NCBI RefSeq assembly: GCF_000829395.1
Contig: NZ_AP014680.1
Span: forward strand, 868,001-932,000
DNA: 64,000 nt
Source of the DNA: Paucilactobacillus hokkaidonensis JCM 18461
GTDB lineage: Bacteria > Bacillota > Bacilli > Lactobacillales > Lactobacillaceae
Direction: 5' to 3'
The notes below the pieces were generated by a model that saw only the letters and a list, made by a program, of their open reading frames with translations, was not told where the DNA came from and searched no databases. Below, piece by piece: positions 34,613-61,267 of the stretch (position 1 is the first letter of the stretch; the number at the start of each line of letters is the position of its first letter). Both the position numbers and the translations under genes were made by a program.

Positions 34613-34725
34613 GTGTTCCGCAAGGCAGGCTCTTCCGCTTAGCCCAATATATTCTATGATCCCAAGTACAGGAATCATAGAATATATCATGCTAATGCTC
34701 GGAGTCTATTCGCCTTGCTGCACAC
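34613..34725 (-). repeat. Element A copy 1: structured 3' element of prsA
   Basis: Read on the minus strand: outer stem GTGT + GCAAGGC / GCCTTGC + ACAC. The 5' internal-loop strand is GAATAGACTCCGAGCATTAG, the distal stem is ATATATTCTATGATTCC against GGGATCATAGAATATAT, and the 3' internal-loop strand is GGCTAAGCGGAAGAGCCT. The same layout and loop strands recur at 61158-61267 with different stem sequences. It begins three bases after the prsA stop codon. Confidence 0.75.
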
Positions 34726-34727
34726 TC

Positions 34728-35636
34728 CTAATTTGATGAAGTCGTAGTTGAAGATGATGTTGCTAGATAATCATCTAGAATATTCTTCAAATCGCTATCC
34801 TTGATAGAAACATTACCCTTCTTCAAGACCTTCGTAACCACACTATGAAGCTTAGTACTGTTACTCATGTCTTCAGTAATGATTTGGTCTTTTAGATCAG
34901 CTGTATGTTGTTTTTCGGTTCCTTTACCTGGGTTTTTAACCATGTAAATAACTTGGTAACCACTATCAGTTTTAACAGGTGAAGTTGTATACTCGTTGGT
35001 CTTAAGCTTGAAAGCAGCTTTCTTATAAGCAGAGTCTAAAGAGGTATCTGTGTTATCAAATGCACTGACAACACCGCCATCACTTTTATTCGAAGTGTCA
35101 GTTGACTTGCTCTTAGCCAATTTCTTGAATGCTTTTAATTTGTCGCCATCTGTATTATTCAAGGTATCAATAATACTTTGAGCATCAGCTTTTTTAGCAA
35201 CTAAAATTTCAGCAGTCTGTACTTTTGGTTGGAATGACTTCCATTGTTTGTTGATATCTTTTTGACTTATCGTCGTATGGTCTTTAACAGCAGCCTTTAA
35301 CAACAAGTTAGAACGAATTTCATCTTTTAAACTAGAGGTTGTCATACTGTTTTGTGATAGAACGCTGCTAAATGATGAACCGTATTGTGATTTGTAAGTA
35401 TTGTATTCTTTTGTGACAGCCGATTTAGAAACGTCATCACCATATTGTTTTTCCAATACCTTATTTAAAATCATTTGTTGTAGCACTTGTTTACCACTTG
35501 AAGTTGATTTCAAGCTGCTGTAATAAGCACTTTCTGTAATTTTACCACCACTCGTGGTGGCGACAGCCTTGTTACCACACGCTGCCAATGGCACCATCAG
35601 TGCCACCCCGGCTAGAATTGCAAGCCATTTTTTCAT
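34728..35636 (-). CDS. prsA: PrsA-type foldase, lipoprotein peptidyl-prolyl isomerase
   Basis: A 302-residue lipoprotein with signal peptide [20 protein letters not shown] and lipobox Cys20. A parvulin-like domain spans about 135-245 ([37 protein letters not shown]), flanked by helical chaperone regions. It helps exported proteins fold outside the membrane. The tail is rich in Ser and Thr. It is monocistronic, convergent with yhaM, and ends in element A. Confidence 0.92.
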
Positions 35637-35790
35637 GTAATATCCACATCCATTTCTTAGATTTAAGTTTGAAAGCTCGAAAACTCACCCATCTAATATA
35701 ACACAAACCCAAAAGTGGGAAAGCAAAGTAGGTGAAAGTTTACAAAAAATTCACATCCTAAGCCTAAGCTTGATACTTTTTTAACTAAAT

Positions 35791-36051
35791 TTACTTTTTG
35801 TTAACGGTTGCTTCATTTAATCGATCAATCTCTGTTTGCATTTTAGTCTGTAGTTCTTTAATTTTATCAAGGCGTGGTTGTGTTTTGAAATTAAATTCAT
35901 CGATTTTTTTTTGCATTTCATCTAATTGAGGCTGAGTTTGTGTGATGGCTTCTTCTAATTTCGTAACGCTCGCGGCAAAATTTTTACTGGCAACACCCAG
36001 TTTCTTAGAATCACTTATCAGACCTTTAATTGAGTTAAGCGGATTTTTCAT
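35791..36051 (-). CDS. Small coiled-coil protein between prsA and hit
   Basis: An 86-residue charged helical protein (MKNPLNSIKGLISDSKKLG, then heptad-like LDEMQKKIDEFNFKTQPRLDKIKELQTKMQ). The ATG at 36051 follows GGAGG; upstream in-frame ATGs lie inside hit. It has no membrane helix, unlike YtxH/YhaH proteins that sit at a similar place in Bacillus. Function unknown. It follows hit directly and is probably co-transcribed. Confidence 0.75.
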   Translation of the reverse strand: MKNPLNSIKGLISDSKKLGVASKNFAASVTKLEEAITQTQPQLDEMQKKIDEFNFKTQPRLDKIKELQTKMQTEIDRLNEATVNKK

Positions 36052-36052
36052 A

Positions 36053-36481
36053 TTAAACCTCCAGGTGGTCAATGATTGATTGTTGAATTTTTTGATAGTC
36101 GGCTGGTGTGTAGTTAGCTGAATTATCTTTGAATACCATTTTAAAATCGTCATCATCAGTGTAGCGAGGGATTAAGTGAAAATGGGAGTGAAATACTGAT
36201 TGATACGCCACAGTACCATTATTATTTAAAACATTCATTCCCTTGATAGTTGGATTGGAAGCTCTAACGGCCCGAGCGATCTTTGGAATCCGGGCAAAGA
36301 CTTTGCTAGCTAGGTCTTCATCGTAAGCGAACAAGTCTGGTACGTGTTTTTTAGGAATTACAAGCGTGTGTCCAGGCGTTCCTTGAGAAATATCTAAAAA
36401 AGCTTTGACAACGTCATCTTCATAAACAGTATAGCTAGGAATTTCATTTGCAATGATTTTGCAAAAAATACAATCATCCAT
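36053..36481 (-). CDS. hit: HIT-family nucleotide hydrolase
   Basis: A 142-residue HIT protein. The triad is HSHFHLIPR with His98, His100 and His102, and the N-terminal Cys4/Cys7 pair in CIFCKI probably binds zinc. The family hydrolyses adenosine-nucleotide phosphoramidates and related compounds. The ATG at 36481 follows AGAGGG. It is divergent from the ecsAB operon, as in Bacillus. Confidence 0.92.
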   Translation of the reverse strand: MDDCIFCKIIANEIPSYTVYEDDVVKAFLDISQGTPGHTLVIPKKHVPDLFAYDEDLASKVFARIPKIARAVRASNPTIKGMNVLNNNGTVAYQSVFHSHFHLIPRYTDDDDFKMVFKDNSANYTPADYQKIQQSIIDHLEV

Positions 36482-36612
36482 CAAAAAGCCCTCTTTCAAT
36501 AATTATTATCTCTCAGTATACAAGACAATCATGAAGCGTGCACCTTTTTGTGACCTTTTTGATATGCTATAATTAACCGAAATACGATAAGTAAAAATAA
36601 GAAGGATAAATG

Positions 36613-37359
36613 ATGACATTAAAAGTTGAACACATCGTGGGTGGTTACTCACAGATTCCAGTTTTAAATGACGTCAGTTTTGACGTGGCAAATGGAGAGC
36701 TAGTTGGTTTAATTGGCTTGAATGGAGCAGGTAAATCAACCACTATCAATCATATTATCGGTTTATTAACGCCGTTTAAGGGTTCTATTAAAATTGATGG
36801 TGTCAGTTTGCAACAAGATAGTGAAAAATATAAGAGCCAAATTGCTTATATTCCAGAAACACCGGTTTTATATGATGAATTGACGTTAAAAGAACACCTT
36901 GAATTAACAATGACAGCCTATAGCTTAGAGCCTAAAGCAGCTTGGCAGCGGGTTAATGCGTTATTAAAAATATTTCGATTGGATAATAAGTTAGATTGGT
37001 TTCCAGCTAATTTTTCTAAAGGGATGAAACAAAAAGTAATGATTTGTTCCGCCTTTATGACGCAGGCAAAGTTGTTTATTATTGATGAACCATTCTATGG
37101 ACTTGATCCATTAGCTGTGCGTGATTTATTAACCCAAATTGAAGCAGTTAAGCAACGTGGTGCTGCAGTTTTAATGTCGACCCATGTTTTGGATACTGCC
37201 GAAAAATACTGTGATCGCTTTGTATTATTGGCAAATGGTCAGATCAAGGCTAAAGGGACTTTAAATGAATTAAGACAATTAGGTGACGGCAAGGATGAAT
37301 CGCTAGATGACATCTATTTGTCATTAGCAAAGGAAGATTTAGATGGAAAAACTGTATAA
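36613..37359 (+). CDS. ecsA: ABC transporter ATPase EcsA
   Basis: A 248-residue ABC ATPase. Walker A is GLNGAGKST (about 36-44), the Q-loop region YIPETP, the signature FSKGMKQK (a KG variant typical of EcsA) and Walker B LFIIDEPFYGLDP. Two ATGs are adjacent; the second (36613) has better spacing to GAAGGA. It overlaps ecsB by 17 bases. The Ecs transporter affects protein secretion and intramembrane proteolysis. Confidence 0.93.
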   Translation: MTLKVEHIVGGYSQIPVLNDVSFDVANGELVGLIGLNGAGKSTTINHIIGLLTPFKGSIKIDGVSLQQDSEKYKSQIAYIPETPVLYDELTLKEHLELTMTAYSLEPKAAWQRVNALLKIFRLDNKLDWFPANFSKGMKQKVMICSAFMTQAKLFIIDEPFYGLDPLAVRDLLTQIEAVKQRGAAVLMSTHVLDTAEKYCDRFVLLANGQIKAKGTLNELRQLGDGKDESLDDIYLSLAKEDLDGKTV

Positions 37360-38551
37360 AAAACGGCGAAGTCAACATTTTTTATTATTATTACGATACT
37401 GGCGCTTAGTTTTCAATGATCATTTTATGATTGCTTTGTTTGTTTTTTTAGGAGCGTTAATTTGGGGCTATTCCCAAGCTCTGGGGCAACTAAAGCCAAC
37501 TATTTGGTGGGCTAAGCCAGTTACAATCGTAATTTTATTAGTCTTAGTTCAACTTGGGCGGTTAGCAACGTTGATTGAGTCTGCGGATCCGGTCTTTTTA
37601 TTACCACAAAGTAAAATGATGGACCACTATTTAGCACAGTCGAAAAGGTATAGCCTTGTACTGGCAGAATTAATAGTTGTTATATGTACAGTGATTGTGA
37701 TGCCATTTTTATTAGCTGCTACAACTACGACCACATTGCAAGTTGGTTTCATTATTTTAACCGTGGCGGTATTGAAGGCCGCTTGGATGGATTCGGCATT
37801 AACTAAGTTATATGAGCGAAGCATGCAGCAACGCTGGATTAAGTTGATAGCCCAATGGATAATACCGTTGGTGATCTTAGTTGTTACCATCGAAGTGAAC
37901 CCAATTGTAGGATTTGTATTGGCACTGGCCTGGCTTGGATGGGCCAAACACCTGTTAATTAAGTCTAAAAATCAATTATTAAATTGGCGGTTAGCCGTTG
38001 CTACTGAAAGACAACGAATGCTTGGGGTGTATCGTTTCTTTAATCTATTTACGGATGTACCGGCAGTTCAAGGGACTATTCATCGGCGTAGGTATCTAGA
38101 TTTTATTGTGCACTTTTTAAGTCGCGATAAGTCCGTCTTTTCTTACTTGTATGCTCGTGGTTTAGTTCGTGGGACAGAAGTTAGCGGCCTAATTGTTCGT
38201 TTGACACTAATCGGAATGGTGATTGTGTTTTTTGTCCCCGAGTTTTGGCTGAATTTAATTTTATATCTACTGTTTATTTACCTAATCACCGTTCAAATCG
38301 TGCCTTTCTATTGGCAATATGACAACCACGTCTTTACCCATCTATATCCAGTTCAGGCAACAGAAAAAAATCGTAGCTTTCAAAAAATAATAAGTAAGAT
38401 AATGTTGATTGCAGCATTATTGCTCTGGTTAGCAAGCAGCACAACTCAGTTATCCTTGAGTGCAATGGGTATCAAGTTAGTTTTAGGAATCGTTGAAGTA
38501 TGGTTACTGTGTGGTGTGTACACAAAAGTTAGGATTGCAAATAAAAATTAA
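37343..38551 (+). CDS. ecsB: ABC transporter permease EcsB
   Basis: A 402-residue polytopic membrane protein with a family-typical N-terminus (LYKKRRSQHFLLLLRYWRLVFNDHF) and six or more membrane helices. The cytosolic central loop contains YRFFNLFTDVPAVQ and RRRYLDFI. It is the membrane partner of EcsA, whose gene it overlaps. Confidence 0.92.
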   Translation: MEKLYKKRRSQHFLLLLRYWRLVFNDHFMIALFVFLGALIWGYSQALGQLKPTIWWAKPVTIVILLVLVQLGRLATLIESADPVFLLPQSKMMDHYLAQSKRYSLVLAELIVVICTVIVMPFLLAATTTTTLQVGFIILTVAVLKAAWMDSALTKLYERSMQQRWIKLIAQWIIPLVILVVTIEVNPIVGFVLALAWLGWAKHLLIKSKNQLLNWRLAVATERQRMLGVYRFFNLFTDVPAVQGTIHRRRYLDFIVHFLSRDKSVFSYLYARGLVRGTEVSGLIVRLTLIGMVIVFFVPEFWLNLILYLLFIYLITVQIVPFYWQYDNHVFTHLYPVQATEKNRSFQKIISKIMLIAALLLWLASSTTQLSLSAMGIKLVLGIVEVWLLCGVYTKVRIANKN

Positions 38552-38567
38552 GTGAGGAATAGATTAA

Positions 38568-39212
38568 ATGCGAGTTAGAAATAAGCCGTGGGCACAACCG
38601 TTGATTGATGCTAATACTGAATTAATTACAGAAACGCCAGATCAGTTTGCTGGTAAATGGCAGGGGCGGTTTGAACAATCACAGCCAATCCATGTTGAAA
38701 TTGGTACCGGCAAGGGTCAATTTATTGTTGGAATGGCTAAGGCACATCCAGAGATTAATTTTGTAGGGGTAGAGATTCAAAAATCTGTGGCTGCTCTAGC
38801 TTTAAAGCTGGCCTTAAATGAGAACTTGCCTAACCTGCAGTTAGTTGCTGGTGCCGGGGAGTCAATTGATACTTATTTTAATGCCGGAGAGGTGAGTCGG
38901 GTTTATTTGAACTTTTCTGATCCATGGCCTAAAACAAGACATGAAAAACGACGATTAACGTATAAGGCGTTTTTAAATTCGTATCAAAATATTTTGCCTG
39001 CTGATGGGATAATTGAATTGAAAACAGATAATCAAGGCTTTTTCGAATATTCGTTGATGAGTTTGAATAATTTTGGACTGGTTTTTGATCATGTCTGGCT
39101 CGATTTGCATAATAGTGAGGAAAACGAAAATAATGTCGAAACTGAATATGAACAAAAATTTAGTGCGAAAGGACAACCAATTTATAAGGTGAAGGCTCAT
39201 TTTAGAGGGTAA
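38568..39212 (+). CDS. trmB: tRNA (guanine-N7-)-methyltransferase
   Basis: A 214-residue SAM-dependent enzyme that makes m7G46 in tRNA. The SAM motif is HVEIGTGKGQF, and the family motif NFSDPWPKTRHEKRRLT holds the catalytic Asp. GTGAGG precedes the ATG, 16 bases after ecsB. A hairpin without T-run (about 39220-39252) follows. Confidence 0.95.
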   Translation: MRVRNKPWAQPLIDANTELITETPDQFAGKWQGRFEQSQPIHVEIGTGKGQFIVGMAKAHPEINFVGVEIQKSVAALALKLALNENLPNLQLVAGAGESIDTYFNAGEVSRVYLNFSDPWPKTRHEKRRLTYKAFLNSYQNILPADGIIELKTDNQGFFEYSLMSLNNFGLVFDHVWLDLHNSEENENNVETEYEQKFSAKGQPIYKVKAHFRG

Positions 39213-39304
39213 ACAAAAAGAAGTGTGACAGAATTACAGAATTGTCCACTTCAATGATAGTTATTCTATAAAAGATTGCTGGGTTATTGGGTATTTTCTA
39301 TACT

Positions 39305-39634
39305 TTAAATCCGTTTTAAACTCAATACTGTCCCAGTCTTAGTGTCGGCCAAAAACTCATATGAAACTAATTGGTCGTCTTCGTAGCGGCTGACACCACC
39401 ACGGTAGGCCTCTGTTTTGAATGCAAATCGCTGGAAGGGAACTTTATTACTCTCAATCCATGATCCTTCAATGGGCCCTTCTTTTTGAAATGAATGCTTG
39501 ATTAAAGTTAAAATGTCACTTGGGTTAAGACGCTCAGCACCTAGCAAGCGACCAAGCAAAAAGCCTGTAACGCCAGAAACTCCCAGTGCGATTGGTAAGA
39601 CCCATCGATCAAATTGTTGTTGTGCAGTATCCAT
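39305..39634 (-). CDS. Small membrane-anchored protein of unknown function (PepSY-like C-terminus)
   Basis: A 109-residue protein with one N-terminal helix (LPIALGVSGVTGFLLGRLL, about 12-30). The extracytoplasmic domain ends in KTGTVLSLKRI, which resembles the last strand of PepSY-type domains. GGAGG precedes the ATG. It lies between trmB and ytpP on the opposite strand. Function unknown. Confidence 0.65.
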   Translation of the reverse strand: MDTAQQQFDRWVLPIALGVSGVTGFLLGRLLGAERLNPSDILTLIKHSFQKEGPIEGSWIESNKVPFQRFAFKTEAYRGGVSRYEDDQLVSYEFLADTKTGTVLSLKRI

Positions 39635-39816
39635 GCCATAACCTCCAGTACAATATCATTGATGCTAGTATACCAAATTATGGATTAGACGACAAAAGAA
39701 TAAAACAGGTGTGTTTTTAAAAGTAGAATAATTGAAGCAAATTTAGTGCTTTTAATTTTGATTTGGGTATAATAAGGCTAGTTGAATTAACACTTGAAAT
39801 TAAAGGGGATATCAGA

Positions 39817-40137
39817 ATGCAAGCAATCGCTAAAACTTCTAAAGATGAATTAATGGATCAAATAAAAACTGGTAAATATATGTTGTTTTTCTCTGCTGGC
39901 TGGTGTTCAGACTGTAACTTTATTAAGCCACAAATGCCTGCAATTGAAGCAGAATACTCAAATTATCAGTTTATTTCAATTGATCGTGATGAAAATTTAG
40001 ATCTTGCTGTTGAACTCAATGTGTTTGGCATTCCAAGTTTCATTGCTTTTGAAGATGGTAAAGAAACTGGACGGTTTGTTAATAAAGATCGTAAAACAAA
40101 GGAACAAGTCGAAAAATTTATTGATGATCTAGCTTAA
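39817..40137 (+). CDS. ytpP: Thioredoxin-like protein YtpP
   Basis: A 106-residue thioredoxin fold with active site GWCSDCNF (C-S-D-C rather than C-G-P-C) and the cis-proline FGIPSF. The ATG at 39817 follows AAAGGGG. Position before ytpR supports YtpP. The variant active-site dipeptide predicts a redox potential different from canonical thioredoxin. Confidence 0.9.
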   Translation: MQAIAKTSKDELMDQIKTGKYMLFFSAGWCSDCNFIKPQMPAIEAEYSNYQFISIDRDENLDLAVELNVFGIPSFIAFEDGKETGRFVNKDRKTKEQVEKFIDDLA

Positions 40138-40160
40138 TAAAAAACAATGCTAAGAATATA

Positions 40161-40187
40161 AATGGCGTAGCAACGCCATTTTTTTGT
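40161..40187 (+). terminator. Terminator after ytpP
   Basis: AATGGCGT-AGCA-ACGCCATT plus TTTTT. Confidence 0.9.
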
Positions 40188-40203
40188 GACGAAAGGATAA
40201 ATT

Positions 40204-40839
40204 ATGTTAATTGCAAGTTATAATCAAGCAGAACTTGGGGATGTTTTAGTTGTTGTCACTGCTGCAGATACGTTGGAGCAGGTGACTACAGTTCGTGATA
40301 ATATTGTAGAAATTGTGGACAAAGATGATGGTCACTTAATTGGATTTAACTTTTTACAGGTCCAAGAGATCTTGCCCAACTTTTCAGGAAACGGACAGGT
40401 TAAATTAAGTACTGAACAATTGGCTTCGTTAAACGGGGCAATTAAACAGGCTGGCTTTGCAACTCAATTAAATGCTGACGAAAGTTCTAAGTTTGTGATT
40501 GGATATGTTAAGGACTTAGAGAAACATCCCAATTCGGATCATTTGCATATTACAAAAACGATTGTAGATGGTAATCAAGAGCTAACTATTGTGTCTGGTT
40601 CACCTAATATTGCTAAAAATATCAAAGTTGTTGTTGCAAAAGTTGGAGCGATGATGCCGAGTGGTCAAATTATTTGGCCAGGACAATTGCGCGGTGTTTC
40701 AAGCAATGGTATGATTTGTTCAGGCAGAGAATTAGGATTAAAAAATGCACCGCAAAAACCTGGCGCATTAATTTTACCTGATAATTTTCAAGAAATTGGG
40801 CAACCATTTGATTTTGATAAAGGCAATCTGCTATTTTAG
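40204..40839 (+). CDS. ytpR: YtpR-family tRNA-binding-domain protein
   Basis: A 211-residue protein. The C-terminal half is a tRNA-binding OB-fold like the PheT N-terminus (KFVIGYVKDLEKHPNSDHLHITK, SGSPNIAKN, GMICSGRELGL). The N-terminal half is YtpR-specific. Function is not known. Its stop codon lies inside the loop of its terminator. Confidence 0.88.
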   Translation: MLIASYNQAELGDVLVVVTAADTLEQVTTVRDNIVEIVDKDDGHLIGFNFLQVQEILPNFSGNGQVKLSTEQLASLNGAIKQAGFATQLNADESSKFVIGYVKDLEKHPNSDHLHITKTIVDGNQELTIVSGSPNIAKNIKVVVAKVGAMMPSGQIIWPGQLRGVSSNGMICSGRELGLKNAPQKPGALILPDNFQEIGQPFDFDKGNLLF

Positions 40840-40856
40840 GATTGCCTTTTTATTTT
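40819..40856 (+). terminator. Terminator overlapping the ytpR stop codon
   Basis: AAAGGCAATC and GATTGCCTTT form a ten-base-pair stem; TTATTTTG follows. The ytpR stop codon lies in its loop, so termination and the end of translation are linked. Confidence 0.8.
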
Positions 40857-40872
40857 GACTGAGGTGAAGGTA

Positions 40873-41262
40873 ATGACAAATCAGTACGATGGACCATCTT
40901 TTTTTCGTCATCCTTCTAAAATAGGTAGTGATGAAATAAAACAACCAGAACGCCAAATATTGCATAATGCAAAAAAAACGCTGGAACGTGTGTACGTGCC
41001 ACCAGTGATGGCAAATAAAAAAGTCAGAGAGCATTTAAATTTAACCAAGATAATGCATCAATTGCACAAAGCGTCAGATGATTATTACGTATCAGTATCT
41101 GATCAAAAAATGGTACAAGCAAACAAAAAATTAGATAAAAGTACTGTAAAAATGACGAAACAATCTAGTAGTAATAAAGCGTTGGGTCATTCCCTAGGTG
41201 ATATTTTGAAGAGTGAACAAGACGCACAACGTGATCTTGCAATATTTAAACACCAAGACTAA
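40873..41262 (+). CDS. Unknown soluble protein between ytpR and murC
   Basis: A 129-residue basic protein without membrane helices (MTNQYDGPSFFRHPSK; LERVYVPPVMANKKVREHLNLTKIM). A Ser/Lys-rich segment leads to ALGHSLGDILKSEQDAQRDLAIF. The ATG at 40873 follows GAGGTGAAGG. In many Firmicutes a DNA translocase (SftA/FtsK) gene lies between ytpR and murC; this could be a remnant or replacement of its N-terminal region, but no motor motif is present. Confidence 0.65.
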   Translation: MTNQYDGPSFFRHPSKIGSDEIKQPERQILHNAKKTLERVYVPPVMANKKVREHLNLTKIMHQLHKASDDYYVSVSDQKMVQANKKLDKSTVKMTKQSSSNKALGHSLGDILKSEQDAQRDLAIFKHQD

Positions 41263-41287
41263 CTCATGGAAGGAATTATAAATAGCA

Positions 41288-42619
41288 ATGGATAATAAGA
41301 CAACATATTATTTCGTAGGAATAAAGGGTTCAGGAATGAGTGCATTGGCACTGGTGTTGCACGATAAGGGGTTTAAAGTGGAAGGGTCTGATATTGACCA
41401 ATATACTTTCACACAACGTGGTCTTGAAGGTGCCGGGATTGATATTTATTCGTTTGATCCAGCAAACATACATTCAGGCCTGACAATTATTGCAGGGAAT
41501 GCTTTCCCAGATGACCATCCGGAGATTGTTGCAGCAAAAAAACTAGGCCTGAAAATATATCGGTATCATGAATTTTTGGGCGAATTAATTGAAGGTTACA
41601 CCAGTATTGGGGTAGCTGGAGCACATGGTAAAACTAGTACAACGGGTTTATTAGCGCATGTTCTCAGTGGAATTGCACCAACCAGTTATTTAATTGGTGA
41701 TGGTAGTGGTAAGGGCAAGCCAGATGCACGCTTCTTCGTGTTCGAAGCAGATGAATATCGCCGCCACTTCATGGCTTATCATCCAGATTATGCGATTATG
41801 ACAAACATTGATTTTGATCATCCTGATTATTTTAGTGGGATGGCAGATGTTACCAGTGCGTTTGAAAGCTTTGGCAAACAAGTTAAAAAAGGAATCTTTG
41901 CGTGGGGCGATGATAAGAATCTGAGAAAATTAGATGTTGATGTTCCTGTTTATTACTATGGAACTGGTGCAACCGATGATTTTCGCGCAGCAGAAATCAA
42001 GCGAACTACCAAGGGATCTAGTTTTGACGTTTATTATCATGATGAATTTCTAGGTGACTTTGAAATTCCGTTGTTTGGTCAACATAATATTTTAAATAGT
42101 CTTGCAGTAATTGCAGTGGCTTATTTTGAAAAGGTCAACCTAGATGACATTAAAACTGAACTATTAACATTTAAAGGTGTAAAACGTCGGTTTAGTGAAC
42201 GCCAAGTGGCAGATATGACGATTATTGATGATTATGCGCACCATCCATCAGAAATTAAAGCAACCTTAGATGCCGCTCGTCAAAAATACCCAGATAAGGA
42301 AATTGTCGCTGTTTTCCAACCACATACATTTACTCGGACAATTGCTTTGTTAGATGATTTCGCGACCAGCCTTAATTTAGCTGATCAAGTCTATTTAACT
42401 GATATTTTTGGTTCTGTGAGAGAACATGCTGGTAAAATATCTAGTGCTGATTTAGGCGCTAAAATTAGTAAGGGTGGCACAGTATTGAAGTTGGATAATA
42501 TGTCTCCTTTACTTGATTATCACGATGCTGTAGTTGTTTTCATGGGTGCTGGGGATGTTCAAAAGTATGAACGGGCATATGAAACGTTATTAAGTAATAT
42601 AACTCCTAAGAATAATTAA
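41288..42619 (+). CDS. murC: UDP-N-acetylmuramate--L-alanine ligase
   Basis: A 443-residue Mur ligase that adds L-alanine to UDP-MurNAc in peptidoglycan synthesis. The N-terminal nucleotide-binding motif is [13 protein letters not shown], the ATP loop GAHGKTSTT (about 109-117), the central motifs include EADEYRR, and the C-terminal domain has [25 protein letters not shown] lies about 13 bases before the ATG, a longish spacing. Confidence 0.96.
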
Positions 42620-50783: not shown

Positions 50784-50908
50784 GTTGAAAGATTAAGCAG
50801 AAGCACCCGCTTCTCGCCTTAGTGATTTGGATCGCTGGGCTCACGAGATTAATGAGTAGTTCTTGATAGGACTGCTAGTGGCGGGGTGCGTGTGCACCTC
50901 GCTTTTTG
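50784..50908 (+). promoter_or_regulatory. infC operon leader (L20 leader type) with attenuator terminator
   Basis: The leader is highly foldable (AGAAGCACCCGCTTCT hairpin near the 5' end). It ends in a terminator, GCGGGGTGC-GTGT-GCACCTCGC plus TTTTTG (50881-50908), before the infC ribosome site. In Bacillus the L20 protein binds an equivalent leader and promotes termination. Placement and terminator fit that class; the exact L20-binding fold was not verified. Confidence 0.75.
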
Positions 50909-50945
50909 TTTTTTCTTTCGCTAATAAATTTGGAGGTGTATTGCC

Positions 50946-53884: not shown

Positions 53885-53899
53885 AAAACGAGGAAAGCA

Positions 53900-54211: not shown

Positions 54212-54223
54212 GGAAGTGATTTT

Positions 54224-54859
54224 TTGCAACATCAAACTACTACTGATGTAACTACACAAACTATTACGCAGACTAAAACAGATGGTCATAAAAGAAGAAT
54301 TGGGTTGTATGGTGGAACGTTTAATCCAATTCACACAAGCCATTTAATTGTGGCCGACCAAGTTGGTAATGCATTAGGATTGGATGAAGTTTTGTTCTTA
54401 CCTGATATGATTCCACCTCATGTGGACGCAAAAGATTCAATTAATCCACAATTACGAATTGATATGATTCAGTTGGCTATTGAAGATAATCCAATGTTTG
54501 GAATTGAATTGGCTGAGGTAAAACGTGGTGGAATTAGTTATACGTTTGATACAATTAAGGAACTAAAAAGAGTTCATCCTGAAAATGATTATTATTTTAT
54601 CATTGGTGGCGACATGGTTGCGTATTTGCCTACATGGCATCGAATTGATGAGCTGGCCAATATGGTCACATTTGTCGGTGTAAGACGACTTGGGTATGAG
54701 ACTAAAAGTAAGTATCCAGTGATTTGGGTTGACGCACCACTAATCGACATTAGTTCTACTGATATCAGACATCGGGTTGAAACCGGGCAATCAGTGCGTT
54801 ATTTAGTACCAAATAAGGTTGCTGCATTTATAAAGGAGCATCGTTTATATCTTGAATGA
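54224..54859 (+). CDS. nadD: Nicotinate-nucleotide adenylyltransferase
   Basis: A 211-residue nucleotidyltransferase for NAD synthesis: GLYGGTFNPIHTSHL with the HxxH ATP site, FIIGGDMV, WHRIDEL, and ISSTDIR near the end. It starts at a TTG after GAGGAAG and carries about 25 extra N-terminal residues rich in Thr and Gln before the core. It overlaps yqeK by eight bases. Confidence 0.95.
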   Translation: MQHQTTTDVTTQTITQTKTDGHKRRIGLYGGTFNPIHTSHLIVADQVGNALGLDEVLFLPDMIPPHVDAKDSINPQLRIDMIQLAIEDNPMFGIELAEVKRGGISYTFDTIKELKRVHPENDYYFIIGGDMVAYLPTWHRIDELANMVTFVGVRRLGYETKSKYPVIWVDAPLIDISSTDIRHRVETGQSVRYLVPNKVAAFIKEHRLYLE

Positions 54860-55460
54860 AGAATTAATCTATCAACAACATTTGATTCCAAACACGCGGT
54901 TAGAATTGATTTCAATTTTAAAAGGCGCCTTAAGTAAAACAAGGTTTGAACACGTTCTCCGAGTTGAACAGACGGCAATTAAATTGGCCAAGCTTAATGA
55001 TGTTGATATTGAAAAGGCTAGCCTAGCTGGATTAGTTCATGATTATGCCAAGCAACGTCCTGATCAAGATTTTATTACTATTATTAATGAAAATAAAATG
55101 GATCCGGATTTGCTTAATTATAGTAATGCTATTTGGCACGGTGTCGTGGGCGCTGAACTGGTCAAACAAGAACTTAATATTTGGGATGAAGATATTTTAA
55201 ATGCTGTCCGACACCATACAACGGGTGCAGCGGTTATGAGTAAATTGGAACAGGTTATTTATATGGCTGACTATATTGAGCCAGGGCGTGAATTTCCGGG
55301 AGTTGAAACAGCAAGGGACGTTACAAAAGCAAATCTAAGTGCAGGTGTAAGTTATCAAACGAAACAAACACTTCAATATTTAATTGAACACAATAAAGCT
55401 GTGTACCCGGAAACAATTACGACCTATAATGCATGGGTTGCAGATAATGGAGGTATTTAA
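54852..55460 (+). CDS. yqeK: YqeK-family HD-domain hydrolase
   Basis: A 202-residue HD-domain protein (FEHVLRVEQTAIKLA, GLVHDYAKQ, WHGVVGAEL, AVRHHTTGA, YMADYIEPGR). YqeK enzymes hydrolyse diadenosine tetraphosphate. TTG start inside nadD with AAGGAG about 13 bases upstream. Confidence 0.94.
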   Translation: MNEELIYQQHLIPNTRLELISILKGALSKTRFEHVLRVEQTAIKLAKLNDVDIEKASLAGLVHDYAKQRPDQDFITIINENKMDPDLLNYSNAIWHGVVGAELVKQELNIWDEDILNAVRHHTTGAAVMSKLEQVIYMADYIEPGREFPGVETARDVTKANLSAGVSYQTKQTLQYLIEHNKAVYPETITTYNAWVADNGGI

Positions 55461-55816
55461 TGGATAGCAAAGAGATTTTAAAGACAGTAGTAAGGGCTGC
55501 TGATGATAAACGTGCTGAAGACATGGTTGCGTTAGATGTCAGAGAAGTTAGTCTGATGGCTGATTATTTTGTCATTATGGATGCAAATTCAAAACGACAA
55601 GTACAAGCAATTGCTGAGGCAGTGGTCGATCAGGATCAAGCATCAGATATCACAGTAAAACAAGTTGAAGGTAAACAGACTGGTGAATGGGTGCTAGTAG
55701 ATTTAGGCGATGTGATTGTGCATATTTTCCAAAAAGAACAGCGTGAATACTATAATTTAGAAAAATTATGGTCACAAGCACCATTGGTTAATATTGATGC
55801 GTGGATGGAAGTATGA
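55460..55816 (+). CDS. rsfS: Ribosome silencing factor RsfS
   Basis: A 118-residue RsfS/Iojap protein (DKRAEDMVALDVREVSLMADYFVI, EWVLVDLGDVIVHIF, YYNLEKLW). It binds L14 and blocks subunit joining in starvation. Its start shares a base with the yqeK stop. Confidence 0.96.
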   Translation: MDSKEILKTVVRAADDKRAEDMVALDVREVSLMADYFVIMDANSKRQVQAIAEAVVDQDQASDITVKQVEGKQTGEWVLVDLGDVIVHIFQKEQREYYNLEKLWSQAPLVNIDAWMEV

Positions 55817-56553
55817 TTTATGCCAGCTTCGCCCAGCTATATGACGAACTATTTGACGAGAAACTATATGTTGAATGGGAAGAATTTGTCACAGCACAAA
55901 TAAATCCTAATAGTAATACTTTGGACCTTGCTGGTGGGGCTGGCAGACTAGCAACTTTGTTAGCAAAACGTAATTATTCGGTTGACGTGGCGGACCTATC
56001 TACAGAAATGCTTAGCTTGGCTGAACAGCATGCCCGGGAAAACAATGTAGATATTAAATTGTTTGAGGCTAATATGCTTGATCTTAGTGAGTTGAGTCAG
56101 TACGATAACATTCTATGTTTTGCTGATTCATTGTGTTATTTAAAGGATTTAACGCAAATTGAAACCACCTTTACTCAGGTAAACGGACATTTAACTGATA
56201 ATGGGATGTTTTTGTTTGATGTAATTACACCGTATCAGACGGACTATGTTTATCCTGATTATATGTATAATTATGAGGATGAGCAACATGAGCGCGCTTT
56301 TTTATGGCAAAGCTATGCTGACGAACAACAAGAACATGGTGTGATTCACGAGCTAACTTTTTTTAATCAAATTAACAAGCAAAATAAGTATGAGCGTGTT
56401 GCTGAAACTCATTTTGAAAAGACGTATGAACTTGATCAATATTTGGCGGCACTGAAACAAGCTAATTTTAGCAAAGTAACGGTTAGCGCTGACTTTGGTC
56501 ATCAAAAAATTAATGAGCAGACAACACGGTGGTTTTTTGTTTGTCAAAAGTGA
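55813..56553 (+). CDS. yqeM: Class I SAM-dependent methyltransferase (YqeM)
   Basis: A 246-residue methyltransferase with SAM motif NTLDLAGGAGRLATLLA (DLAGGAGR in place of the usual acidic-GxGxG) and VADLSTEMLSLAEQ. The ATG at 55813 overlaps the rsfS stop (ATGA) and follows GGAAG. Target unknown. Confidence 0.88.
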   Translation: MIYASFAQLYDELFDEKLYVEWEEFVTAQINPNSNTLDLAGGAGRLATLLAKRNYSVDVADLSTEMLSLAEQHARENNVDIKLFEANMLDLSELSQYDNILCFADSLCYLKDLTQIETTFTQVNGHLTDNGMFLFDVITPYQTDYVYPDYMYNYEDEQHERAFLWQSYADEQQEHGVIHELTFFNQINKQNKYERVAETHFEKTYELDQYLAALKQANFSKVTVSADFGHQKINEQTTRWFFVCQK

Positions 56554-56563
56554 GTGTGGTTAG

Positions 56564-57703
56564 ATGAAAGCGGTTGGGCTGGTAGCAGAATATAATCCGT
56601 TGCATAACGGTCATTTGTATCATTTAAAGATGGCCAAACAGATTACCAAAGCGGATGTTACAGTTGCCGTGATGAGCGGTAATTTTACGCAGCGGGCTGA
56701 ACCAACAATTTTAGACAAATGGCAACGAACTAAAGAAGCATTATCCGTTGGAGTTGATTTGGTGGTTGAATTACCAATGCAGTATGCAGTCCAACCAGCC
56801 CATCTATTTGCGAGTGGAGCACTTTCATTATTGGATAGTTTGCAGATTGACGATTTTGTTTTTGGAGCCGAACATCCAGATTGGGACTTTAATTCACTAG
56901 TTCAAGCTGAAAATAAGTTTGAGTCCACCGATTTTTCAAAATATAATGCTACTTACGCGACTGCTTTTAATAACCAGTTAATTGAGCATACTGGTATTTC
57001 TTTAACGGAACCAAATGATATTTTAGCGTTTGGATACACTAAAGCTAAACTGAAGTCAAAATTATCGGTTAACTTACATCCGGTTAAGCGCGTTGGTAGT
57101 GCCTATCATGATGAAAAAATTGATGACACCAGTTCTATTAGTAGTGCCAGTGCGATTAGAAAGGCTGTAAAAAATGGTAGTGCTGGTTTTGAATCGCTAG
57201 TACCAGAACAAACTGCGGTAGATTTAAAAGAGTTGAAGGATGTTAATGATTGGAATGATTTATATCCATTGCTGCGATATCAACTAATTCAAGCACCATT
57301 GAACTATTTGGCACAGACATATCAAATGTCTGAGGGATTAGAACATCGATTAAAACAGGCTGCACAAAGGGCTTCTGATTTTGATGCGTTTATGCGGTTG
57401 GCTAAGAGTAAACGATACACGTATTCTCGGATACAGCGAGTTTGTTTGTATGCACTTTTACAAATTAGTGATGAACAGATGCAAATTAAAAATAAACAGT
57501 TGTATTTGCGAATATTAGGTTTTAATCACCTTGGTCAAGAATATTTACATCAGATTAAGAAAACTGTTAAAATACCAATAATTACAAAAGTAGATCAAAA
57601 GAGTAGAGATGGACAGTTGCAATTAGATTACCGTGCAGGAAAGTTGTATGAACAATTATCTGGTGTAGAACAGGATATGCGACGTAGACCGATTATTGTT
57701 TAG
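56564..57703 (+). CDS. tmcAL: tRNA(Met) cytidine acetate ligase
   Basis: A 379-residue protein (formerly YlbM). The N-terminal nucleotidyltransferase motif is GLVAEYNPLHNGHLYHL and SGNFTQRAEP; SSISSASAIRKAV is the conserved ATP-site loop. TmcAL makes N4-acetylcytidine at the wobble base of elongator tRNA-Met using acetate and ATP. Last gene of the yqeG cluster. Confidence 0.93.
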   Translation: MKAVGLVAEYNPLHNGHLYHLKMAKQITKADVTVAVMSGNFTQRAEPTILDKWQRTKEALSVGVDLVVELPMQYAVQPAHLFASGALSLLDSLQIDDFVFGAEHPDWDFNSLVQAENKFESTDFSKYNATYATAFNNQLIEHTGISLTEPNDILAFGYTKAKLKSKLSVNLHPVKRVGSAYHDEKIDDTSSISSASAIRKAVKNGSAGFESLVPEQTAVDLKELKDVNDWNDLYPLLRYQLIQAPLNYLAQTYQMSEGLEHRLKQAAQRASDFDAFMRLAKSKRYTYSRIQRVCLYALLQISDEQMQIKNKQLYLRILGFNHLGQEYLHQIKKTVKIPIITKVDQKSRDGQLQLDYRAGKLYEQLSGVEQDMRRRPIIV

Positions 57704-57732
57704 TTTAGTATTTTTCAGACTTTTTTTGGACA

Positions 57733-57848
57733 TGTTCGTAAGGTCGGATATCAATAGTTAGGTTGCAAATAACAATTAATAAGTCGATTTATAGTTTATT
57801 GATTGTTATTTGCAACTTAGTTTGTGAAATCTAAACGTCCCACGAACA
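57733..57848 (-). repeat. Element B, inverted single copy upstream of yceD
   Basis: On the minus strand it shares GTGTTCG, then ACTAAG and AACAATCAATAAA in the same order as the 50.5 kb units. Outer arms are TGTTCGT/ACGAACA, and the inner stem GTTGCAAATAACAATTAATAA pairs over 21 positions with its partner at 57795-57816. It ends 18 bases before the yceD promoter. Confidence 0.7.
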
Positions 57849-57865
57849 CTGTCAAGGATATAACG

Positions 57866-57894
57866 TTGACAATCAATTTGTGTCCTAGTATAAT
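57866..57894 (+). promoter_or_regulatory. Sigma-A promoter of yceD-rpmF
   Basis: Perfect consensus TTGACA (57866-57871), 17 bases, TATAAT (57889-57894). Because it lies inside the in-frame upstream extension of yceD, it fixes the true start at 57923. Confidence 0.9.
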
Positions 57895-57922
57895 TAAGCA
57901 CGTTGCATTAGGAGGTAGTACC

Positions 57923-58483
57923 ATGAAATGGTCATTGAATGAACTGCAGCAATACCAAGATGAGCCACTTTCGTTGAATAGTACGATTGACCTGAACGCA
58001 TCATTAACTGAGCGTTTCCCCGATTTGATTTTGGCAGTAGCTCCCGTGAACGTAACGGGATATCTTTCTTATGAAAAAGGGGATGTGATGGTAACAGCCA
58101 CGGTTAAAACCGATTTGACCTTACCATCAACGCGCTCATTGACACCGGTGAAATTTCCAACTCAATTTACATTCACTGAGTACTATTTGGAGGATGAAAG
58201 TCATATTGAGCGATATGAAAATGATGAAACGGTGATTGTGTTGGATGACGATCGAAAGATTGATTTTGATGAGGCAGTGGCAGAAAACATTGTCTTAGAG
58301 CTTCCAATGCGCGTTTTGTCCAAAGAAGAGCAACAACAAGGAGCGCCATTACCAACTGGAAGTGGTTGGGAAGTGGTCTCTGAAGAAGATTATGTTGCTA
58401 ATGGGACAAAACATGACTCAGTTGATCCACGTCTAGCTAAATTAAAAGAATTACTTCCTGATCAGGATGATAACAATAATTAG
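57923..58483 (+). CDS. yceD: YceD/DUF177-family 23S rRNA accumulation protein
   Basis: A 186-residue acidic protein (MKWSLNELQQYQDEPLSLN; YLSYEKGDVMVTATVKTDLTLPSTRSL; RKIDFDEAVAENIVLELPMRVL). It pairs with rpmF, the usual context of YceD, which supports 50S assembly. AGGAGG precedes the ATG at 57923. Confidence 0.94.
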   Translation: MKWSLNELQQYQDEPLSLNSTIDLNASLTERFPDLILAVAPVNVTGYLSYEKGDVMVTATVKTDLTLPSTRSLTPVKFPTQFTFTEYYLEDESHIERYENDETVIVLDDDRKIDFDEAVAENIVLELPMRVLSKEEQQQGAPLPTGSGWEVVSEEDYVANGTKHDSVDPRLAKLKELLPDQDDNNN

Positions 58484-58535
58484 CAGACAAGTTTAAAATT
58501 TCAGTGGATAATTTTTTTGATAGGAGGTGGCATTA

Positions 58536-58715
58536 ATGGCTGTTCCAGCACGAAAAACATCAAAGACTAAAAAGGCAATGCGTCGCGGACACATTAAACT
58601 TTCAGTTCCTGGTTTGGCACCATGTCCAAATTGTGGAGAATTACGTAAATCACATATGGTTTGCCCAAATTGTGGATTCTACGATGGCAAGCAAGTAGTT
58701 AGTGATAACAATTAA
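58536..58715 (+). CDS. rpmF: 50S ribosomal protein L32
   Basis: A 59-residue L32 with N-terminus [18 protein letters not shown] and a zinc-binding pair CPNCG/CPNCG. AGGAGG precedes the ATG at 58536. Confidence 0.98.
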
Positions 58716-58726
58716 TTAATATAAAA

Positions 58727-58766
58727 AAGAAACATTCACGGCGCCGGACCTGAATGTTTCTTTTTT
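58727..58766 (+). terminator. Terminator after rpmF
   Basis: AGAAACATTCA and TGAATGTTTCT around a GC-rich loop, followed by TTTTTT. Confidence 0.9.
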
Positions 58767-58806
58767 TAGATTTAATATAAAATAAATATGGAAGGAGTGC
58801 TGAGCA

Positions 58807-59508
58807 ATGTTTGAGGTAACAACTTTACATATTATCTTGCGGCTAGTTTTAATTATATTAATTTCCGGAATTATTGGTTATGATCGTGAGCATAAAAGTC
58901 GTCCAGCAGGGATTAGAACAACGATGTTAGTTGGAGTGGGAGCTTGTATCATTGCCATGACACAGCAAGAAATTGCATATCAGGCAATTCAGTTTACAAT
59001 TGCACATCGTAATTTAGGTAATGTTGTACGAACTGACCAAGCACGTCTAATTTGCCAGGTGGTTAGTGGCATTGGATTTTTAGGTGCCGGAACAATTATA
59101 GTTCATCGTGGTGATATTTCGGGCTTAACGACGGCTGCATCATTGTGGGTGACAGCTGGGTTAGGGATAGTAGTCGGAATGGGCTATTATGAAATTGCTG
59201 TAATTAGTTCATTAGTTGTAATTTGTGTGTTGATGTTTGTCAAACGGATTATTCATGTGAATGTACTTTTAAAATTAGAAGTACAATATCTGAACAAAAA
59301 AGAAGCTTTAGCGGTTACTGACCAGTACTTTGATGACCACGGGATTAAGATTCGGAAGGTCAAACTTTCGTCGAAAATAATTGCTGAACGACTACAGTTT
59401 ACCAGTTATTTTGAATTATCATTACCAAAACAAATGACACTTGCACAAGTGGAAAATGACTTAGCTCATAAACAGGAGATCATTGCAGTTAGAAGAATTG
59501 AAGTTTAA
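58807..59508 (+). CDS. MgtC/SapB-family membrane protein
   Basis: A 233-residue protein: an MgtC domain (about 1-145) with GIIGYDREHKSRPAGIRTTMLVGVGA in pieces, SGIGFLGAGTI and GLTTAASLWVTAGLGI, then a soluble ACT-like domain. MgtC proteins modulate F-ATPase and magnesium or acid adaptation. GGAAGGAG precedes the ATG. No other magnesium gene is nearby. Confidence 0.9.
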   Translation: MFEVTTLHIILRLVLIILISGIIGYDREHKSRPAGIRTTMLVGVGACIIAMTQQEIAYQAIQFTIAHRNLGNVVRTDQARLICQVVSGIGFLGAGTIIVHRGDISGLTTAASLWVTAGLGIVVGMGYYEIAVISSLVVICVLMFVKRIIHVNVLLKLEVQYLNKKEALAVTDQYFDDHGIKIRKVKLSSKIIAERLQFTSYFELSLPKQMTLAQVENDLAHKQEIIAVRRIEV

Positions 59509-59538
59509 ACAATCTAACATCAGAACTTTTTTGTTTAC

Positions 59539-59720
59539 ACTGAAAGTGAAGTCAAGACCGTCCATACTCTCTGGGACTTCGAGTCCGTAATTTAAAAGGG
59601 CATCCTGCACTTTCATCGCACAAATATGATTTAAGATTGAGGACCTAAGAGGCCGTGTTTAGGAAATGATTTAATGCGCTGAAAGTATAGTTACGACTTC
59701 ATAAACTTGATAAGGAAGTG
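59539..59720 (+). ncRNA. Candidate IS110 bridge RNA region
   Basis: Non-coding sequence just 5' of the transposase. TGAAAGTG (59541-59548) pairs exactly with CACTTTCA (59608-59615), enclosing GAAGTC/GACTTC and GGACT-TCG-AGTCC. A second hairpin CCTAA/TTAGG (59644-59663) has a ten-base loop. Bridge RNAs of IS110-group elements lie at this place and consist of a stem-loop followed by two internal-loop hairpins. The guide loops were not identified. Confidence 0.45.
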
Positions 59721-59725
59721 ATATT

Positions 59726-60934
59726 TTGTCTGATGTAATCGCATTGGATGTTTCAAAAAACCACAGCTACGCTGTTTGGTATCGTAATAATAAATGCTTA
59801 AGCGAGTTCAACTTTCAACATAATAAAGTGGGATTTCAACGGCTCAAAAGAATTGTGGATGAAGCGAAGAGCCCAACAGTTTACTTTGAAGCCACTGGTA
59901 TTTATTCTCGCCCAGTTGCTCGTTTTTGTCAGGATAATCAGTTCAAGTATGCTCAGTTAAATCCATTAGAACTTCATCTTCATTCTGAAAATTTGCGACG
60001 TATTAAAACTGACAAGGTTGATGCACATAAAATGGCTCACGCAGTAGTAGAAAAAAAATACCGATGCACTAATACCTGGTCTAAAAATTATCGAAAATTA
60101 CACGAATTAAGTCGATTCTATGATCAAATAAGTGATGAAATTAAGTTGAAACGTCTCAGACTATATACGGCTCTTGATCAAACTTTTCCTGAGGAAGAAC
60201 AGCTTTTTACTAATCAAGTCTCAAAATTAGCCTTGAACGTAATTCTGCTATTTCCTCACCCAGATTTGGTACGATCTTTTTCGCGTACGCGTTTAAAAAA
60301 TAAACTAATGTCTCAAATTGATAAAAGATTATCCCAAGCCAAAGGCTTGAAGTACGCAGAAAAGCTTCTTAAATTTGCTAAAATTAGTTATCCGGCCGCT
60401 GACGTCGATAGTATTCAAGTTCAGGAAGTTAAGTACTACTGTCGCCAATTAATTGAGCTAACCAAGGAAAAAGATGCATTAGTAAAACAAACAGAGAAAT
60501 TAGCACAATCATTGCAAGTTTATAAAATTTATACCTCAATACCTGGTATTGGACCTTTAACGGCCTCTCGTTTGCTAGGTGAACTCGGTGATATTACTCG
60601 TTTTGATAATGCTAATCAACTAAATGACTATATTGGTATTGATTTAAACCGTTATCAATCAGGTAAGTATCAACGACAGGACCATATTAATAAACGCGGT
60701 AATCCACATGGTCGAGCGCTTGTTTATATAATTGTTCGTAATATGATTCGTCAGAAAGCAGTGGCTAATAATCACATTGTTGATTATTATTACCGACTAA
60801 AAAAGCGACCTATCCCTAAACGAGATAAGGTCGCAGTGGTTGCCTGTATGAACAGGACACTAAAATGCCTTTATGCCATGGTAACAGCAGGCACTGAATA
60901 CGTTTATGCGTATGCGGACTCGCGGTCCCTTTAA
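59726..60934 (+). CDS. IS110-family transposase (DEDD, bridge-RNA-guided recombinase family)
   Basis: A 402-residue protein. The N-terminal RuvC-like DEDD domain starts ALDVSKNHSYAVW, then FEATGIYSRPV, KTDKVDAHKMAHA. A helical middle and the C-terminal Transposase_20 domain follow: TSIPGIGPLTASRLLGELGDI and KRGNPHGRALVY with the catalytic serine region. TTG start after AAGGAAG. The frame is intact and no motif is missing, so it may be active. Confidence 0.93.
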   Translation: MSDVIALDVSKNHSYAVWYRNNKCLSEFNFQHNKVGFQRLKRIVDEAKSPTVYFEATGIYSRPVARFCQDNQFKYAQLNPLELHLHSENLRRIKTDKVDAHKMAHAVVEKKYRCTNTWSKNYRKLHELSRFYDQISDEIKLKRLRLYTALDQTFPEEEQLFTNQVSKLALNVILLFPHPDLVRSFSRTRLKNKLMSQIDKRLSQAKGLKYAEKLLKFAKISYPAADVDSIQVQEVKYYCRQLIELTKEKDALVKQTEKLAQSLQVYKIYTSIPGIGPLTASRLLGELGDITRFDNANQLNDYIGIDLNRYQSGKYQRQDHINKRGNPHGRALVYIIVRNMIRQKAVANNHIVDYYYRLKKRPIPKRDKVAVVACMNRTLKCLYAMVTAGTEYVYAYADSRSL

Positions 60935-61008
60935 AAACTCGGAGTTAGATTACTCCATAACTGAATAATATTCCTTTTCTCAGTATTTTTAAAGTTAAAT
61001 ATTGAGAT

Positions 61009-61031
61009 TGGGTTTGTGTACCCATTTTTTG
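61009..61031 (+). terminator. Terminator downstream of the IS110 transposase
   Basis: TGGGT-TTGTG-TACCCA followed by TTTTTTG. A GGAGT-TAGATT-ACTCC hairpin lies closer to the gene (about 60939-60956). From 61032 to 61157 I see only an imperfect GATTCAC/GTGAACC dyad. Confidence 0.7.
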
Positions 61032-61157
61032 TGACCGTTTACGACCTCTAACCTTAATTCCAAGAGCATGATTCACTTCGTGAACCATAAATTAAAATTA
61101 ATAATTCAAGACCATAAGATTAAATCTGGGGCTTGACTAATCGTAGGAAAAAAGAGA

Positions 61158-61267
61158 GTGGGCAATAAGGCGATTAGATTCTGAGCATAGTCTAGATTAA
61201 CGAATGATCCGGACTTTGGATCGTTTGTTAATCGTAGCTAAGCGGAAGAATCTGCCTTATTGCCCAC
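61158..61267 (+). repeat. Element A copy 2
   Basis: Outer stem GTGGGCAATAAGGC / GCCTTATTGCCCAC (14 bp). The 5' internal strand is GATTAGATTCTGAGCATAGT, the distal stem GATTAACGAATGATCC / GGATCGTTTGTTAATC with loop GGACTTT, and the 3' internal strand GTAGCTAAGCGGAAGAATCT. The architecture equals copy 1 at 34.6 kb with compensatory differences in both stems. Confidence 0.78.

What the first reader, a model, noticed from the sequence alone, without database searches (positions are those of the whole stretch)
34613..61267. Element A: dispersed structured repeat with covarying stems and conserved internal loop
Copies at 34613-34725 (minus) and 61158-61267 (plus) share an outer stem ending AAGGC/GCCTT, an asymmetric loop with strands GA-TAGA-TC-GAGCAT and GCTAAGCGGAAGA, and a distal stem with a seven-base loop. 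Outer and distal stems differ in sequence but remain paired, which is strong evidence for selection on RNA structure. Both lie at gene 3' ends, one three bases after prsA. A collapsed relative terminates the gene at 22031.
Basis: seen in the sequence. Interest (0 to 1): 0.82.

Follow-up and report, generated by a model that had tools for sequence, protein, structure and literature searches.

The report
Mobile RNA hairpins at gene ends
A roughly 115-base RNA hairpin with a conserved bulge is scattered in many copies over this lactic-acid-bacterium genome and related bacteria, often right after a gene's stop codon and on the gene's own strand; it looks like a jumping element whose RNA shape is kept by selection, and its role is not yet known.

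Summary
The two copies (34610-34727 minus, 61156-61270 plus) belong to a dispersed hairpin family; a third intact copy lies at 34344-34461 (plus), a degenerate one at 57729-57851 (minus) and a relic at 22046. This genome holds at least 93 places, 14 of them chimeric or partial. Covariation far exceeds shuffled and slid controls. The frame, above all a 5-nt bulge opposite one U, recurs in Lactobacillaceae, in family f3 (probably Enterococcaceae; 72 of 105 genomes) and in 28 of 359 sampled genomes outside the order. No Rfam match above threshold falls on a copy. Copies often lie in sense at stop codons (41 of 86 within 25 nt, antisense 6 of 86), and G-U pairs exceed A-C mismatches, so the mRNA-sense strand seems to be the selected one. 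Sites are gained and lost between close species. Best reading: an EFAR-like mobile repeat whose sense RNA fold is selected, probably as a 3'-end element of mRNA. The mechanism is inferred, not shown.

The parts
61156..61270 (+). element copy, class A type 1 (intact)
   Evidence: R1 134.4 bits, E 6.4e-36; 118.8 bits with R2
61299..61330 (+). terminator-like hairpin that follows the type-1 copy and seems part of the dispersed unit
   Evidence: read; similar hairpins follow many other type-1 copies (by eye)
34610..34727 (-). element copy, class A type 2, begins directly after the prsA stop codon
   Evidence: R1 108.1 bits, E 2.1e-28; prsA ORF 34728-35636 (-)
34344..34461 (+). element copy, class B; supplies the stop codon (TAA, ends 34356) of the yhaM-like gene
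   Evidence: R1 66.4 bits, E 2e-16; R2 81.1 bits; C-terminus compared with relatives
34560..34579 (.). bidirectional terminator hairpin between the two facing copies
   Evidence: read; only a hairpin of this kind is present in relatives without elements
57729..57851 (-). degenerate copy, antisense to both flanking genes
   Evidence: R2 31.6 bits, E 2.6e-6; sequence, genes
22046..22093 (+). probable collapsed relic, now a plain terminator
   Evidence: 22 of 27 bases of the 5' arm; R1 E only 0.18
59726..61147 (+). neighbouring IS110-family element (transposase gene 59726-60934; the right end is inferred from the shared junction); it abuts the A tract before the 61 kb copy
   Evidence: Pfam PF01548 and PF02371; same junction at other copies

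Best explanation
A large family of non-autonomous dispersed repeats whose sense transcript is a long hairpin with a conserved 5-nt bulge opposite one U and class-specific inner loops. Shown: the fold covaries; mismatch types point to the sense strand; copies lie often at or inside stop codons of unrelated genes; they come and go between sister species; at least two young copies sit inside the distal hairpin of older copies. Inferred: transcribed as the 3' end of an mRNA or between two cistrons, the hairpin acts in cis as a 3'-end module that shields the upstream message from 3'-to-5' decay or fixes its 3' end, with the conserved bulge and loops as the site of a protein or RNase. Also inferred: it spreads by inserting at stem-loops such as terminators, like the EFAR repeats of Enterococcus faecalis (recalled), and copies at gene ends are those that survive. 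I put about 0.9 on 'selected as a sense-strand nucleic acid fold' and 0.45 on the cis 3'-end role.
For: Covariation; 92.6% of cells paired against 55.8% shuffled and 36-47% slid; covariation score 0.876 against 0.198 shuffled and at most 0.135 slid; families outside the order: 86.3% against 53.2%, score 0.854 against 0.217. Sense strand: G-U against A-C 158:18, 199:24 and 169:26 in A6, A4 and A2 with four variable outer positions left out, 169:27, 224:34 and 187:38 with all; by pair column 27:4, 25:4 and 25:5. Position: sense stop codon within 25 nt of the 5' end in 41 of 86 own, 42 of 95 same-genus and 37 of 63 same-family copies, antisense equivalents 6, 6 and 4; f9 family 16 of 28 against 0. 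Tandem gene pairs 26 co-directional against 5 opposite (p 2e-4). In annotated records the element lies 3-24 nt after a CDS on its strand in 4 of 5 records: E. faecalis, E. faecium twice, L. plantarum. In situ maintenance: at 13 shared-site comparisons 158 of 556 pairs changed, 66 by double and 32 by single changes that keep pairing. Mobility. Upstream genes of 42 own copies show no shared function; the commonest family has 3.
Against: No transcript, half-life or binding data. Elements are absent at orthologous ends of close relatives, so no single gene needs one. At shared sites 60 of 158 changed pairs are broken, 41 of them in four comparisons with indels, and gene conversion is not excluded. 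Of 72 own copies, 8 lie between divergent genes and 5 are antisense in tandem contexts by crude ORF calls; one window copy is antisense (57729). Only 1 of 8 copies of other families in the order has a sense stop within 25 nt. A terminator was found after only 29 of 75 own copies (control 10 of 78) and 26 of 75 in relatives (control 15 of 76). Model searches favour intact copies, alignments A2, A4, A6 and A7 are fitted to the model, and the higher-scoring strand was taken as the copy's strand. In A1, where a sequence motif fixed the strand, the excess is 38:5 by cell but only 8 against 5 by pair column.
Confidence: 0.45

Rival explanations
1. Purely selfish element: the fold is needed only for its own mobilisation (recognised as sense single-stranded DNA or as RNA by an unknown transposase or reverse transcriptase); gene-end placement reflects target choice (terminator stem-loops) and survival.
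For: Nested insertions into stem-loops, closely alike young copies, tandem arrays and turnover between species; no common function of host genes.
Against: Copies at shared sites keep pairing through compensatory changes. No linked mobility gene was found: of 72 f3 genomes with the element 20 have no Y1 transposase match, 11 of them with 20 or more copies; other transposase families were not tested.
Confidence: 0.35
2. DNA-level palindrome correction: template switching at replication keeps the arms complementary, so covariation arises without selection on RNA.
For: Long near-perfect arms; tandem duplications of the 3' half point to replication errors at the hairpin.
Against: Correction would erase the conserved bulge, which persists (5 nt in 85 of 89, G...A in 72, opposite U in 78 of 89; GNNNA opposite U in 16 of 16 outside the order), and gives no G-U over A-C excess.
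Confidence: 0.07
3. Ordinary intrinsic terminators that happen to be repeated.
For: Many copies lie at gene ends, and a collapsed form (22046) is a terminator.
Against: Most copies printed are not followed by a U tract; where a separate terminator hairpin was found it starts 17-30 nt on in 16 of 29 own cases; copies also lie between co-directional genes, e.g. upstream of a GTPase-like gene, kept in two species (read by eye).
Confidence: 0.08

Closest known systems
EFAR / Efa-1 repeats of Enterococcus faecalis
   Same: Efa-1 is listed as 163 bp, 65 copies, intergenic, 'a pair of adjacent SLSs' (PMC2267715, passages; that Efa-1 is EFAR is my inference). Type-1 units here are about 175 bp with two adjacent hairpins; E. 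faecalis itself carries a family member. From recall, EFAR inserts into stem-loop targets, as in the two nested cases.
   Different: EFAR letters could not be compared: the original paper was not found in the library; one held paper names EFAR among MITEs (PMC3733652, passage). The family here spans several families of the class and shows covariation and a sense-strand bias, which I did not see described in the passages read.
bcr repeats of the Bacillus cereus group
   Same: Dispersed, partly transcribed as parts of UTRs; co-transcription with bcr3 correlates with longer mRNA half-life (PMC3446304, passages).
   Different: No sequence relation was tested.
REP / BIME repeats with RAYT transposases
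   Same: Extragenic, high copy, palindromic.
   Different: REPs are 20-40 bp (PMC3733652, start of abstract), with GTAG or CGTC tags (its title); here about 115 nt, and a Y1 transposase is not required.

Membership tests
EFAR/Efa-1 | two adjacent stem-loops, about 163-170 bp | tested here: met
   type-1 unit in the window: 115-nt hairpin, 28 nt, 32-nt hairpin; a second hairpin was found after only part of all copies
EFAR/Efa-1 | occurs in E. faecalis as a high-copy repeat | tested here: inconclusive
   one E. faecalis copy confirmed by R2, 7 BLAST places in that 747-kb record; no E. faecalis chromosome was counted
EFAR/Efa-1 | nucleotide identity to published EFAR | not testable with these tools
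   paper not found in the library
EFAR/Efa-1 | insertion into stem-loop targets (recalled) | tested here: inconclusive
   two nested insertions in distal hairpins; flank complementarity in some type-1 copies only (by eye)
REP/RAYT | 20-40 bp palindrome with GTAG or CGTC tag | tested here: not met
   about 115 nt; the tags were not searched systematically
REP/RAYT | resident Y1 transposase | tested here: not met
   20 of 72 element-bearing f3 genomes have no PF01797 match; association not significant, Fisher p 0.12
Any Rfam 15 family | covariance-model match above the gathering score on a copy | tested here: not met
   window and 35 further loci: matches above threshold were an L20 leader, a T-box and a SAM riboswitch, none on a copy; sub-threshold matches on copies: mir-3524 (22 of 99 bits), L20 leader (28.6 of 58.7 bits) and two miRNA models
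Intrinsic terminator | hairpin directly followed by a U tract | tested here: not met
   tails printed; type 1 has GTTTTAG, most others fewer T
Integron attC site | complementary RYYYAAC...GTTRRRY ends (recalled) | tested here: not met
   5' end GAGTG, 3' end CACGTT: only GTG/CAC pair (by reading)

The most novel reading that the evidence does not exclude
A class-wide RNA module of Bacilli: an ancient, mobile 3'-end hairpin recognised through its conserved bulge and inner loops by one conserved RNA-binding or RNA-processing factor, marking the 3' ends of many unrelated messages; possibly spread through an RNA intermediate in the manner of a bacterial SINE, which would explain the sense-biased placement at stop codons.
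Probability: 0.17. Interest if true: 0.92.

Novelty: new variant of a known kind. Interest (0 to 1): 0.72.

Why it matters
If right, a structured RNA with probably thousands of copies (extrapolated from the per-genome counts) in lactic acid bacteria, enterococci and other Bacilli has escaped the RNA-family library, and gene 3' ends in these bacteria are repeatedly reset by a mobile RNA. Sister species with and without the element behind the same gene would be a natural experiment on mRNA 3' ends, and the conserved bulge a handle on an unknown binding factor.

Tried and rejected
Rfam with permissive E-values: only sub-threshold matches on copies. Prophage or virus origin: no viral contig with the strict class-A pattern; the prsA copy had no match in plasmids and the 61 kb copy none in phages; more distant relatives do occur on Enterococcus, Lactococcus and Lactobacillaceae plasmids and in records named Enterococcus and Listeria phage. 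Copies from outside the order had no plasmid match, nor had one f3 copy. Bridge RNA of the neighbouring IS110: rejected, since the IS matched only 4 of 113 stretches searched and abuts the T or A tract of the unit. A strict Lactobacillaceae-type pattern over the class gave 48 in this genome and 3 single hits in 397 others, with 1 control hit, which I read as chance; R2 then showed that this pattern had been too narrow. A strict terminator finder (23 of 80 own, control 8 of 81) was replaced by a fold-based one. In one search two of 30 f9 loci were misplaced because their contigs end early; recount. Literature: nothing on this family beyond EFAR/Efa-1 in the listings of the ten searches that ran; absence from print is not claimed beyond them.
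Full report
CHECK OF THE OBSERVATION. Their folds are far below dinucleotide shuffles (z -10.9 and -7.1). A broader model R2 adds a degenerate copy at 57729-57851 (-), E 2.6e-6.

COPY NUMBER. The 13-base loop strand occurs 19 times in the genome (0 when read backwards). R1 gave 114 rows over both strands, which I reduced by hand to 72 places by dropping the weaker strand of the palindromes. Rescanning the 53 stretches around them gave 88 places, of which 14 are chimeric with another repeat or partial. An independent pattern search counted 48 with 0 control hits here, and five of the ten own places it listed lie outside those stretches. So at least 93 places; the genome search scored only 150 of 1155 first-look candidates, so this is a lower bound.

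STRUCTURE. The hairpin has an outer stem, a 5-nt bulge opposite a single residue (5 nt in 85 of 89, G...A in 72, opposite U in 78 of 89 distinct rows of A6), a short stem, a second internal loop and a long, freely varying distal stem. Two other features are class-specific rather than universal: a G-N-A/G-N-A mismatch in the outer stem (21 of 89 rows) and a UGA/CGGAA-like inner loop (34 of 89). Covariation: 19 of 39 pairs with double changes in A1 against 9.8 shuffled. In A6, across families, 92.6% of cells are paired against 55.8% shuffled and 36-47% slid, covariation score 0.876 against 0.198; all 39 pairs show double changes there, but shuffles reach 35.9 on average, so that count alone says little. 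In A7, from outside the order, 86.3% against 53.2%, score 0.854 against 0.217. A6 and A7 are fitted to the model, which favours the structure; A1 was aligned by MAFFT, its structure written by hand.

WHICH STRAND. In stems, G-U pairs outnumber A-C mismatches 158:18, 199:24 and 169:26 in A6, A4 and A2, leaving out four variable outer positions, and 169:27, 224:34 and 187:38 with them; in A7 19:6. By pair column, which does not multiply related copies, it is 27:4, 25:4, 25:5 and 10:2. This is expected if the sense strand is the molecule that folds. Strand was assigned by the higher model score, usually by a wide margin (e.g. 138 against 59 bits). In A1, where the 13-mer fixed the strand, it is 38:5 by cell but only 8 against 5 by pair column, so the unbiased support is weaker.

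WHERE IT SITS. With crude ORF calls, 72 copies lie between convergent genes (33), co-directional genes with the element in sense (26), co-directional genes with it antisense (5) or divergent genes (8) (26 against 5, p 2e-4). A sense stop codon lies within 25 nt of the 5' end in 41 of 86 own, 42 of 95 same-genus, 37 of 63 same-family and 1 of 8 other-family copies; the antisense equivalents are 6, 6, 4 and 0. For f9 it is 16 of 28 against 0 (two misplaced loci dropped). Outside the order it is 5 of 10 against 0 of 10 (read by eye). The element itself holds the stop codon in 15 of 74 own and 19 of 79 same-genus cases with an open frame of 80 codons or more, as for the yhaM-like gene here. In annotated public records it lies 3-24 nt behind a CDS in 4 of 5 cases. 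A terminator-like hairpin follows 29 of 75 own copies (13 skipped), in 16 of them 17-30 nt on, against 10 of 78 on the antisense side; in relatives 26 of 75 against 15 of 76. Upstream genes are unrelated to each other (42 scanned).

MOBILITY. The prsA/yhaM junction holds only a terminator hairpin in two same-genus relatives (91% and 84% PrsA identity) and one chimeric copy, on the yhaM side, in a third. Another site is occupied in G006 and lacks an element here. Type-1 copies are 82-98% alike over their unit with largely unrelated flanks. Two of them lie inside the distal hairpin of an older copy, and the joined flanks fold back into the expected host hairpin (the second host's 3' end is itself rearranged). 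Tandem arrays and 3'-half duplications occur. On the other hand, shared sites exist between species, and there changed pairs are mostly kept paired: 98 of 158, 66 by double changes (13 comparisons, some between paralogous segments, gene conversion not excluded; 41 of the 60 broken pairs fall in four comparisons).

DISTRIBUTION. f1 is Lactobacillaceae (G236 and the named Pediococcus parvulus locus L219 share contig position and score); f3 is probably Enterococcaceae (107 of 117 plasmid records similar to an f3 copy are Enterococcus). R1: 7 of 7 genomes of the genus, 135 of 301 of the family, 17 of 40 genera, 23 of 198 of the order, 4 of 14 of one f9 genus with up to 73 rows. R2: 72 of 105 f3 genomes, up to the scoring limit of 35 matches, and 32 of 398 in the class; 28 of these lie among the 359 genomes outside the order (359 counted from the list of the same draw). 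I read 10 loci of those; the GNNNA bulge opposite U is present in 16 of 16 copies aligned from them. E-values are rough and no decoy genomes were run for R2. Named hosts in the genome scan: the 80 stretches listed, of 108, all bear genus names that I know as Lactobacillaceae.

MECHANISM. Supported: a sense-strand fold under selection, enriched at gene ends, mobile. Inferred: a cis-acting 3'-end module (shield against 3'-to-5' decay, or a processing or binding site). Support by analogy only: co-transcription with the bcr3 repeat goes with longer half-life in B. cereus, a correlation its authors treat with caution (PMC3446304, passages). A purely selfish hairpin is the main rival; palindrome correction and plain terminators explain less.

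KNOWN OR NEW. No Rfam 15 match above threshold falls on a copy in the window and 35 further loci. The nearest described repeat is EFAR/Efa-1 of E. faecalis, probably a member of this family, but its letters could not be compared. I file the finding as a new variant of a known kind: MITE-like bacterial repeats, here as a widespread, covarying, sense-biased RNA family.

Noticed in passing
61128-61156; L134, L121, L329, L330: The end of an IS110-family element (CCTACGATTAGTCAAG) abuts the T or A tract bordering the repeat unit at five places in two species, which suggests that this IS110 targets the terminator edge of the unit.
   Followed up: partly
L121:8143-8305, L119:3849-4011, L116/L126/L135/L142/L151 around 2201: A second small repeat (GTCCAAAGAACTAACTGC... 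/ GCCATTATTACTTGCCGG...) forms chimeras with the element: its halves replace or interrupt one or both arms.
   Followed up: no
34344-34356: The yhaM-like gene here has a different C-terminal tail from its relatives: the element encodes the last codons and the stop.
   Followed up: partly
929156-933162 of contig C1 (window 61156 and just beyond its end): Two type-1 copies flanked by inverted copies of the same IS110-containing stretch, perhaps an inversion or duplication.
   Followed up: no
phages collection, records named Listeria phage LM 4-11-1 and LM 4-14-1: 130 records named Listeria phage match the family; the one opened is an unverified 3,950-base wastewater contig without annotation. 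They may be bacterial chromosome fragments; this was not tested.
   Followed up: no
50789-50917: An L20 leader above the gathering score, an ordinary feature.
   Followed up: no
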